A DNA stretch of 64,000 nucleotides from Anseranas semipalmata. Lineage: Eukaryota; Chordata; Aves; Anseriformes; Anseranatidae. Within the stretch, counting starts at the first letter, position 1, and every line of letters begins with the position of its first letter. Below the pieces are notes generated by a model. The model searched no databases. It saw nothing but the letters and a program-made list of their open reading frames with translations, and was not told the DNA's origin. Position numbers and translations under genes: made by a program. Below, piece after piece: positions 2,358-5,500 of the stretch. The DNA lies in assembly GCA_013399115.1 (NCBI GenBank), contig VXAA01001241.1:704560-768559 (forward strand), written 5' to 3'.

Positions 2358-2445
2358 CAAAAGATTAAAAGGTGGCGTCACATCGCTCCCCTGCTCTTTC
2401 CCGCAGGAGGGACTTAAAAGGGACAACAAAAACTAATCACTTTCA
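2358..2445 (+). promoter_or_regulatory. Putative core promoter of the alternative first exon
   Basis: Two TATA-like A/T stretches, GATTAAAAGG near 2363-2372 and CTTAAAAGGG near 2413-2422, flank a CGTCA motif (half of a cAMP response element) at 2376-2380. If the second A/T stretch places initiation about 30 bases downstream, transcription would start near 2445. That would give a 5' untranslated region of roughly 75 bases before the ATG at 2521. The motifs are seen directly. Promoter activity is inferred from their position between the CpG-rich patch and a well-formed first exon. Confidence 0.35.
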
Positions 2446-2520
2446 ATACGCGTTTTCTTGCAAAAAAGGGACTTAGCTGTGCAATTTGAGGCTGGTGGTG
2501 AGGATTGGGAAGGCTAGAGG

Positions 2521-2566
2521 ATGCTTCATACTGCTAACAAGGGAAGGAAGCCTTCAACTGAGGCAG
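2521..2566 (+). CDS. TENM2: Short first coding exon, probably an alternative amino terminus of teneurin-2
   Basis: The exon begins at an ATG with A at -3 and an in-frame TAG at 2515-2517. It encodes [15 protein letters not shown] and ends one base into the next codon at a good donor, CAG|GTAAGA (intron from 2567). I recall near-identical residues at the start of an alternative short amino terminus of vertebrate teneurin-2, where the shared downstream exon starts within a glycine codon followed by Arg-Pro-Ile-Pro-Pro. A phase-1 end on G fits that junction. Teneurin-2 is a large type II synaptic transmembrane protein that binds latrophilins. This start would replace the usual cytoplasmic N-terminal segment (the one beginning MDVKDRR). 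Neither that canonical first exon nor the shared next exon is in the window. The gene call rests on memory of a 15-residue peptide and on phase. The exon structure itself is better supported than its identity. Confidence 0.5.
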
Positions 2567-5500
2567 GTAAGAAGTGCCTGAATCCGGTGTTTTACGGAGT
2601 GGCTTGATCGGAGCGGTAGATTTCCAGCAGATTTGTCAGATTTTCTAACTGAGGAATGCAACTGCAGCAAGAGGCAGCATCGGTGTTGTATCAGATTCCT
2701 TTTGTTTAAGATTTAAAGTATGTGCTGTAAATTGAATTGAAAAGGCTTTGTAAAGAAGCTGTATTCACCCTGAATGATTTTTCCCTGTTTCTCTGTGTAT
2801 CAAAATAAAACAGAACCAGCTTTTGTGAAAGCTGGACTTTGCTTAAGGTTAGATTCAATGCTCGAATCAGAACAAGAAAAGCTTTTGAGTCTTATAACCT
2901 TCTGGGAGCTTGGCATTCTGCAATTTGGTTACAGCAGCTGATCTAAAAATTAACTGTACTTATTTACTATTTATTTGCTAAGGTAAAATGTAGCATTGAG
3001 TTTAAGTCTAGGTGAATATGGTTTGTTTGCCTGGCATTTCATCAGCTGAATAGCTATGCCCTTTTAGACATACTGTAGAACCTATTTCGTGTTTATGTTT
3101 TGTAAATTGAGATTAAGTACCATCCGGAATGAAATACGTGACTAAAACTCATAAACTGCATCTGTGTTTAGTAAAGCAATCACCAAATTAGAATAATGGA
3201 TTTATGTCAGTTGTCAAATGGAGTTAACTCTGAAAGTGCTGTCCACTAGTGCACTTGGATTACAATAAAGGGCTTTCTGTTTAACAGTTATTGAGAGGAG
3301 CTAATTTATCAGGCAAAGCGTCTGAACTTGGGTCTTGTGATACTATAAAATTATATAGCTTAGAGTGTTTGTGGTTTGAGGAAACCTGCCCTTTCATTCT
3401 CTATGAAAATACATTCAGGCTATAGTAGGGATTCCAAAAGCAAAAAATACTTTCAATTTTAAAATGCTATGTGCTGGTAAGTGCTTTTATTTGCAAGTGA
3501 AATATTAGCTGTTGGGACTTCTGTTTCTGGTCTTCGCTGGTTTTGGTGCTTTTTTCTCTCCCTGCATTTCTGTGCTTATATTTTACAGTTGCTGTCTGTG
3601 TGAGCAAACTAAGACCGAACAGAAGGAAGGGATTCTGTGAGCAGCAGTGGTGTTCTGAATTTCATTGTCACAGTGAAAAGTGAGCAAGCAATCAAGGATA
3701 GTTAGACCTTTATTAGGGTTTTAAAGGAAAGCAAACAATATTGCAATGATCAGAGTTGTAAAAGTACAGTACTAATTAACTGTCTCTGAAAGCAGAGCTA
3801 TGGAAAAGCTAACTTGATATTATAAGCAGCCATAGAGTAAACATTGTTTAATAGGTAGATTTTAGGGTTGCAGACCTACAAATGAGCATACTGCAGATGG
3901 AAATGAATACATTTACTTGAGAACTTTTGTCTTTGTGCAAGTTTAGCCTAATGACTCAATCCTGCATGCAGATACGTGAATGCACAATGCAACGTACCTT
4001 GTGAAAATCAGTGGCAGTGCTCTCTGCGTACGTTCGCAGTATCTGATTTTACAAGATAGGCAGTGACAAGCCACCACATAGCTGAGTGGGATCAAGCCCC
4101 TGGGGAAGTCTGGTCTCCCATCAGTGTGCGGGGACTTCATGTGTTACTACTTCTACCTTCAGTGGCAGTTACTCATGTATATGTATATCATTCTCATATA
4201 AAGGGTCAGATTTTTTTCTGAGGATTTATAATCAGACAAAAGAACCTGTAAATGTTTCACTGATTTATAGTGGACATTTTTATTTTTTAACTCCAGTTTT
4301 GTTGAGTTTCTGGCATTGGCATTACACCTCTTTTTCTCCTTTCAAAATTTTTCTGTATGTTCTTCCAAGCTCCTTTCATGTTTCAGATCTGTTTAACTGC
4401 ATGCTGGATCAAAATGAAATTGGGTAACTTGTCCAACAAAAATGGAAGTCTTGGATATAATGTGGTATTTTAAATGATATCTTGTGACTTAACTGAGGTA
4501 AATCTAAGTGTAAATGATAGCTGACTTTCAACATGGATTTGTCATTAAAAAATTTGTCCCTTATGAAATGGCAGAAAACTACAAGGTTGGAGGCAATCTA
4601 ACTTGATCTTTTTGAGCCCAGAATGCAGGATCTGAATTGCAGATCATTTATCTTTCATTTTGGCATTTGCTAACTCTGCCCTACTAGATTTTAAATGAGT
4701 GATTAATATAAATAGCAGCATTTTACTGATGTTCCAGTAGATGTTGCTGGAGAGCAAAGCAAAGATTATTTGATAGAGGAAAAGAAATGCAGGGAGATTA
4801 CAAAAGCCAAGGAAAAATCTCAAGGTAAATGGTTATACAGGCTGTTGATAGATTAATAATATGAGACCAATAAATTTTTGCATCATCATCTTAGGTTCTA
4901 TTCAATCTGAATAAGTGCGTGTACTGAAATTTTGTTAGACTTATCACGACTGTGCTCTTTTTTTAAGGTTTGTAGTTTTTACTTATCCCTTTTAACATTT
5001 TATTGCTAGTATTGACATTGTTTCACATGCATATTTTCTCAGAGGAAGGGCTGAAAGAGTATCCCTAAAAGTGTTATTTTTTAAAAAAGTTCACAAAATA
5101 CAAATGTTTAATTATAAATTAAGAAATGAAATGCATTCAATCTCAAAATTAGTAGAATTCCAATATAGTGAAGTTGCTTTCTGTTGAACAGCAAGAGGTT
5201 ACCAGATCAACACATAATGCAATTAAAAAAAATAGTTAAGTAGTACATTATCGTTCTTAACTATGAACAATAATGAGTTAACATCTTTTTGCAATGTGCT
5301 TAAATTCTGAGAGAAATCCTCTGATGAGGCTCACATTAACAAACTGAAGTAGAGTAATGGCAAATGAGAGGACAGAAAGCTGCGATGTCCTATTCTGAAA
5401 CTACTGTGTCATTAATTAATCAGATAAAATGATAAAGCAGTCCCAAAGGAGTGGAGGACTGTAGCATACAGGCGCTAACTGATGCAATTTCAGGCAACCA

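What the first reader, a model, noticed from the sequence alone, without database searches (positions are those of the whole stretch)
2358..2570. Alternative promoter and 15-codon first exon, likely for a short teneurin-2 isoform
Upstream stop, A at -3, ATG, 15 codons and a strong phase-1 donor make a complete first coding exon that an ORF length filter would miss. The peptide resembles, from memory, an alternative teneurin-2 amino terminus. Using it would remove the canonical N-terminal part of the cytoplasmic domain and so change intracellular partners or nuclear signalling while keeping the extracellular latrophilin-binding part. The CRE half-site hints at activity-linked regulation.
Basis: partly seen in the sequence, partly recalled or inferred. 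Interest (0 to 1): 0.75.

Follow-up and report, generated by a model that had tools for sequence, protein, structure and literature searches.

The report
Alternative start exon of teneurin-2
The stretch is a genuine alternative first coding exon of the nerve-cell adhesion gene teneurin-2, shared by frogs, reptiles and mammals, which swaps much of the protein's inner tail for 15 residues; such exons are already known, but this one is little studied.

Summary
Confirmed, with one correction. ATG 2521, 15 codons, phase-1 donor 2567 and in-frame TAG 2515 are exact. That pattern alone is not rare: 9 similar cases in the window. Homology decides. [16 protein letters not shown] matches the start of opossum teneurin-2 isoform X14 at 16/16 residues; 22 of 184 fetched proteins (19 species of mammals, squamates, frogs; no bird or primate) start with a version of it. 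The window lies on the + strand inside TENM2 of its own 1.10-Gb genome, between canonical exon 2 and shared exon 3; joining 2521-2566 to exon 3 gives the opossum sequence. It replaces 167 N-terminal residues of the cytoplasmic tail.

Correction: "alternative promoter" is unproven. A strong acceptor at 2405-2406 (rank 2 of 4367 AGs) suggests an exon of 2407-2566, perhaps spliced from an upstream noncoding exon.

New here: a second TENM2 exon at 56156-56239, an 84-nt cassette found in squamate isoforms.

A human first exon in the same intron is in print (PMC5417686, passages), so this is a conserved member of a known kind. No transcript was available; function is untested.

The parts
2407..2566 (+). 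Proposed full extent of the alternative first coding exon of TENM2 if the strong acceptor is used (160 nt: 114 nt leader without upstream ATG, 46 nt coding)
   Evidence: Acceptor at 2405-2406 rank 2 of 4367 AGs, donor at 2567 rank 3 of 4047 GTs; the only ATGs between 2301 and 2600 are at 2306 and 2521. Extent inferred.
2521..2566 (+). Coding part: 15 codons [15 protein letters not shown] plus first base of a split Gly codon (phase 1)
   Evidence: Exact sequence; 16/16 identical to opossum teneurin-2 isoform X14
2567..2572 (+). 5' splice site CAG|GTAAGA
   Evidence: 8 of 9 consensus bases; rank 3 of 4047 GTs
2405..2406 (+). Candidate 3' splice site (AG after CTCCCCTGCTCTTTCCCGC)
   Evidence: Rank 2 of 4367 AGs by a simple score; use not shown
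2515..2517 (+). In-frame TAG upstream of the ATG
2358..2404 (+).
   Evidence: Motifs present; the half-site is common in the window; no start-site data
56156..56239 (+). 84-nt TENM2 cassette exon (phase 1 in, phase 1 out), encoding [28 protein letters not shown] (its first codon split) plus one base
   Evidence: 26/29 identical to the squamate teneurin-2 cassette, E 3e-14; TTTAG acceptor and TAC|GTAAGG donor; in-silico splices stay in frame after either start

Best explanation
Window 2521-2566 is the orthologue, in a bird-sized genome, of an alternative first coding exon of TENM2 found in frogs, squamates and mammals. It lies in the intron between canonical coding exons 2 and 3, and a phase-1 junction joins it to shared exon 3. 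SHOWN by sequence: identity of the peptide, position inside TENM2 on the same strand, matching phase, and an exact in-silico protein over 85 residues. INFERRED: transcripts starting upstream of it (from a promoter just 5', or more likely from a farther noncoding exon spliced to the acceptor at 2406) translate a teneurin-2 whose cytoplasmic tail has the 15-residue start in place of the 167 residues encoded by exons 1-2. The tail keeps the SLLP and LRPPLPP sequences that fit published EB-binding search patterns, the proline-rich exon, the transmembrane segment and the ectodomain. It would therefore keep adhesion and microtubule or SH3 contacts and lose whatever the N-terminal part does (phosphorylation, nuclear functions). 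The cassette at 56156-56239 can optionally be inserted after either start.
For: Opossum X14 16/16, rodents 15/16, other mammals 12-14/16, squamates 14, 14 and 9 (one indel), frogs 11-12; 22 of 184 fetched proteins, 19 species. M1 L2 N6 K7 G8 R9 K10 E14 are invariant in 21 of the 22 (Pogona, with an indel, left out). Window is G000:C669:704560-768559, the first 30 coding bases occur once, and bases 2200-2700 are single copy. Canonical exon 2, matched at C669:591693-591980, ends in phase 1 before a GT at 591970. Exon 3 at C669:839960-840169 has acceptor TTTCCCAG|GTCGTCCC. The spliced product is identical to opossum X14 over all 85 residues joined. Squamates read TEA-D and EEN-D into the cassette, which independently fixes phase 1. 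Motifs retained. In print: human exon 1' with its own translation start in TENM2 intron 2, found in cell lines lacking exons 1-2 (PMC5417686, passages).
Against: No transcript from this species was available. Most of the 22 proteins carry 'isoform X' or 'PREDICTED' names, i.e. are predicted models (naming convention recalled). None of the 22 is from a bird or a primate: the four bird proteins seen by name (P0125, P0127, P0129, P0131) are canonical, and the four human ones seen by name are canonical (X5, X8) or start MVSPPLL (X21) or MKLQN (X22). The database is clustered at 90% identity and two of three searches listed only the best 120, so this absence is weak evidence. Some models insert extra sequence after the peptide (three squamates the cassette; four frog proteins about 40 residues).
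Confidence: 0.92

Rival explanations
1. One reading: the exon is the true 5'-terminal exon, transcribed from its own promoter around 2358-2406 (TTAAAA box, CRE half-site), with the acceptor-like sequence unused.
For: TTAAAA at 2365 and CGTCA at 2376; CpG o/e 0.51 over 1751-2750 against a median of 0.28 for 500-base windows; other teneurin genes do use alternative promoters: human TENM1 (PMC3127987, passages), C. elegans ten-1 (PMC6418043, passages).
Against: Acceptor ending at 2406 ranks 2 of 4367 and precedes a top-3 donor by 161 bases, as for an internal exon; CGTCA/TGACG occurs 24 times in the window; CpG rank only 19 of 252.
Confidence: 0.35
2. The exon is mainly a regulatory 'poison' exon: spliced after canonical exon 2 it brings a stop and sends the transcript to decay.
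For: Canonical exon 2 ends in phase 1, and joining it to 2407 gives GGA GGG ACT TAA, an immediate stop (read by eye); splice sites score high on both sides.
Against: The 15-residue reading frame itself is conserved from frogs to mammals with invariant residues, and its phase fits exon 3; a pure poison exon needs no conserved peptide.
Confidence: 0.06
3. Chance open frame in intron sequence.
For: Nine comparable ATG-plus-donor structures in the window.
Against: 16/16 identity with an annotated teneurin-2 isoform, inside TENM2, right strand and phase; E 9.6e-8 for the peptide in this window.
Confidence: 0.01

Closest known systems
Teneurin-2 isoforms with the same start in public databases (opossum X14; mouse X18, X20, X22; rat X13; goat X6; horse X17; others; source names)
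   Same: Same 15-residue start, same junction with the shared RPIPP exon, 12-16 of 16 residues identical in mammals
   Different: Another species here; no bird protein with this start seen; most are predicted models
Human TENM2 exon 1' (AK056053.1), PMC5417686 (passages)
   Same: Alternative first exon with its own translation start in intron 2, upstream of exon 3, expressed in cell lines lacking exons 1-2
   Different: Its sequence is not in the main text and supplements could not be read, so identity with this exon is not shown; the two non-canonical human proteins seen here begin MVSPPLL and MKLQN
C. elegans ten-1 long and short forms (PMC6297184, PMC6418043, passages)
   Same: One gene, two starts, same ectodomain, short cytoplasmic tail
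   Different: The worm short tail is 36 residues; here about 200 residues of tail remain; two promoters are described in the worm, none is shown here. Sequence relation not tested
Human TENM1 alternate promoter (PMC3127987, passages)
   Same: Alternative 5' exons conserved in mouse and chicken, far from the first coding exon
   Different: Those exons are untranslated, so the protein should be unchanged

Membership tests
TENM2 alternative first coding exon (MLHTANK type) | Same peptide as annotated teneurin-2 isoforms | tested here: met
   16/16 with opossum X14; 22 of 184 fetched proteins of this type
TENM2 alternative first coding exon (MLHTANK type) | Lies inside TENM2 between exons 2 and 3 on the same strand | tested here: met
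   C669:707080 between 591693 and 839960, all +
TENM2 alternative first coding exon (MLHTANK type) | Donor phase equals that of exon 2, and the splice to exon 3 is in frame | tested here: met
   In-silico splice identical to opossum X14 over 85 residues
TENM2 alternative first coding exon (MLHTANK type) | Spliced transcripts in this species | not testable with these tools
   No RNA data held
Alternative promoter | Transcription starts at the exon | not testable with these tools
   No 5'-end data; a strong acceptor ending at 2406 argues for a spliced-in exon
Human TENM2 exon 1' (AK056053) | Sequence identity | tested here: inconclusive
Short-tail teneurin (C. elegans TEN-1S type) | Loss of nuclear targeting with intact ectodomain | not tested
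   Tail would lose 167 residues and gain 15 (368 to 216 residues before KYCSWKC, canonical pigeon against short opossum protein); localisation needs experiment

The most novel reading that the evidence does not exclude
TENM2 intron 2 holds a tetrapod-wide switch module: an alternative start exon with a near-invariant NKGRK core, in 20 of 22 proteins followed by S or T in an R-K-x-S/T kinase-like context, plus an optional 84-nt cassette. It makes a teneurin-2 that adheres and still engages microtubules but cannot do the N-terminal signalling, and so acts as an adhesion-only or interfering form whose N-terminus is switched by phosphorylation.
Probability: 0.25. Interest if true: 0.6.

Novelty: new member of a known kind. 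Interest (0 to 1): 0.42.

Why it matters
Teneurin-2 organises synapses, and its cytoplasmic tail is credited with nuclear and microtubule functions (PMC6297184, PMC10284602, passages). A 15-residue start shared by frogs, squamates and mammals means that selection has preserved a form without the N-terminal tail. Knock-outs, antibodies and constructs aimed at exons 1-2 would miss it (inference). A review (PMC6297184, passages) says that tail variants in chicken and human are many and their significance unknown; a conserved exon pair with exact coordinates makes that testable.

Tried and rejected
Full-text searches for the peptide (0 papers) and for ANKGRKPS and two forms of the cassette peptide (0 papers) found nothing; for AK056053 only PMC5417686. 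TENM2 with 'alternative transcription start': 0 papers. The library is open-licence PMC papers only. Rfam over the window: 0 matches at gathering scores. Tandem repeats: 8 rows, none at the exon. A look for CR1-like tail motifs to identify the species gave no array. Pfam on 10 of the 60 stop-to-stop frames of 90 aa or more: two weak rows (E 0.044 and 0.082), both below cut-off; the other 50 frames were not scanned. Ten other teneurin-2 alternative starts (MVSPPLL, MKLQN and the like) were looked for in the window by tblastn; the best row was E 0.33, and the shortest (9-12 residues) could hardly have given a significant hit. The frog extension: best E 0.41. The Rhineura second insert: best E 0.61 in C669:833000-1032999, which holds 691 N. 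The recalled canonical N-terminus and shared exons were not found in the window (best E 0.079). A search among proteins of about 190-595 residues returned 30, of which one (Nanorana, P0157) has the start.

Full report
Observation. The elements reported are exact: TAG 2515-2517, ATG 2521 with A at -3, 15 codons to 2565, one further base, then GTAAGA from 2567. As a pattern this is unremarkable; a scan for ATG with purine at -3, upstream stop and a donor matching at least 8 of 9 bases gave 5 cases on + and 4 on - in the 64 kb. Two things lift it. By a simple score with recalled weights the donor ranks 3 of 4047 GTs, and an acceptor ending at 2406 (CTCCCCTGCTCTTTCCCGCAG|GAGGG) ranks 2 of 4367 AGs. 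The translated peptide also has relatives.

Homology. A protein search scored on residues 1-100 of a recalled teneurin-2 query carrying the window peptide found 297 proteins, 120 listed. The best 14 start with this peptide: opossum (16/16), mouse (three isoforms), lemming, rat, sand rat, goat, tamandua, two horses, two bats and European mink. Repeating with the opossum protein, residues 1-40 (258 proteins, 120 listed), added squamates (Rhineura, Zootoca, Pogona) and frogs (two Pseudophryne entries, Mixophyes, Gastrophryne). A search among shorter proteins (30 found) added the frog Nanorana. In all, 22 of the 184 proteins fetched, from 19 species, have this start. In 21 of them (Pogona left out for a one-residue indel) M1 L2 N6 K7 G8 R9 K10 and E14 never vary. 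Results against: none of the 22 is from a bird or a primate. The four bird proteins seen by name are canonical. Primate proteins at the same junction show other starts, such as MVSPPLL and MKLQN; a related MVSQ start occurs in panda and sheep entries.

Place in the genome. The window is G000:C669:704560-768559, + strand, in a genome of 1.10 Gb and 4080 contigs; the first 30 bases of the coding part occur once there, and bases 2200-2700 are single copy. A pigeon (Caloenas) teneurin-2 maps along C669 on the + strand: canonical exon 2 (residues 76-171) matched at 591693-591980 (98%), further exons from 1032787 to 1066527 (83-99%). The shared exon RPIPPTSS is at 839960-840169, the next near 890320, the transmembrane exon near 904662. 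So the exon sits 115 kb after exon 2 and 133 kb before exon 3. Exon 2 ends AACG|GTAGGC, phase 1, a weaker donor (3.66) than the alternative one (7.17). Exon 3 begins TTTCCCAG|GTCGTCCC. The splice of 2521-2566 to exon 3 gives [44 protein letters not shown]..., identical to opossum X14 over all 85 residues joined.

A second exon in the window. In squamates the start may be followed by [29 protein letters not shown], and the cassette also follows the canonical N-terminus (Podarcis, where it is extended; Thamnophis). The window encodes it at 56155-56241 with 26 of 29 residues identical (E 3e-14; reversed decoys reach E 0.45 at best for this query). Its exon is 56156-56239, 84 nt, phase 1 on both sides, TTTAG acceptor and TAC|GTAAGG donor, both modest in strength (rank 194 of 4367 and 244 of 4047). 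It keeps the frame after either start. The squamates' TEA-D and EEN-D junctions confirm phase 1 independently. Whether this species uses it is not known.

Is it a promoter? Not shown. The strong acceptor ending 115 bases before the ATG fits an internal exon, 2407-2566, with a 114-nt leader free of upstream ATG, joined to some upstream noncoding exon that I have not located. Joined to canonical exon 2 it would stop at once (GGA GGG ACT TAA, read by eye from the sequence), so it cannot lengthen the canonical protein. I put about 0.35 on an own promoter and more on a spliced-in first coding exon; both give the same protein.

What it would do. The Pfam model Ten_N (Teneurin Intracellular Region) is matched only from position 153 of 367 in the short form (that query was partly recalled). 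Canonical residues 1-167 of the 368 before the KYCSWKC motif, counted in the pigeon protein, are replaced. SLLP, SNVP and LRPPLPP remain. They fit the search patterns that PMC10284602 gives for EB-binding motifs (Sx[ILV]P; LRPPTP[ILV] with two mismatches; passages); which of them are the authors' two motifs is my inference. PMC5417686 (passages) says that starting from exon 1' would alter the N-terminal cytoplasmic domain while all Ten-2 variants kept the proline-rich exon 4. So adhesion, EB and SH3 contacts should persist while N-terminal functions are lost. In C. elegans a short-tail form from a second promoter does not reach the nucleus (PMC6418043, passages). That the short form here is likewise adhesion-biased is inference. 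R9-K10-x-S/T12 resembles a basophilic kinase site (motif recalled) in 20 of 22 proteins; Gastrophryne has L at position 12 and Pogona Q at 10.

Novelty. Isoforms with this start are in public databases, a human first exon in the same intron has been published (PMC5417686), and a review notes many tail variants of unknown meaning (PMC6297184, passages). I found no paper holding the peptide or the cassette peptide in the open-licence library. It is a conserved member of a known kind; the additions here are the exon pair in one intron of a bird-sized genome, the frog-to-mammal comparison and the strong acceptor.

Noticed in passing
56156-56239 (+): A second TENM2 exon: an 84-nt cassette (phase 1-1) known from squamate teneurin-2 isoforms, usable in frame after either N-terminus; its splice sites are modest.
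   Followed up: yes
2405-2406 (+): By a simple score the second strongest acceptor-like site in the window ends 115 bases upstream of the ATG, which challenges the own-promoter idea.
   Followed up: partly
P0123, P0124, P0128, P0157 (frogs): Four frog proteins continue AGK(E/D)SPNSKCC... for about 40 residues before R(P/S)IP; this may be read-through of the donor to a downstream donor, as the window would read AGKKCLNP through GTAAGA. The frog Gastrophryne (P0132) goes straight into RPIP.
   Followed up: no
P0031, P0034-P0038, P0082, P0110, P0111 (primates); P0146, P0153, P0156, P0160: Teneurin-2 proteins of primates show several other starts at or near the exon-3 junction (MVSPPLL, MKLQN, MQARSS, MLTQKD), with MVSQ relatives in lemur, panda and sheep; the MLHTANK start was not seen in any primate protein fetched.
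   Followed up: no
about 2080-2240 (+): A CT-rich stretch of roughly 160 bases upstream of the exon, seen by eye.
   Followed up: no
P0121: Rhineura has a further insert (GEGCSSVVNHQLC...) a little after the RPIPP exon; no counterpart found in C669:833000-1032999.
   Followed up: partly
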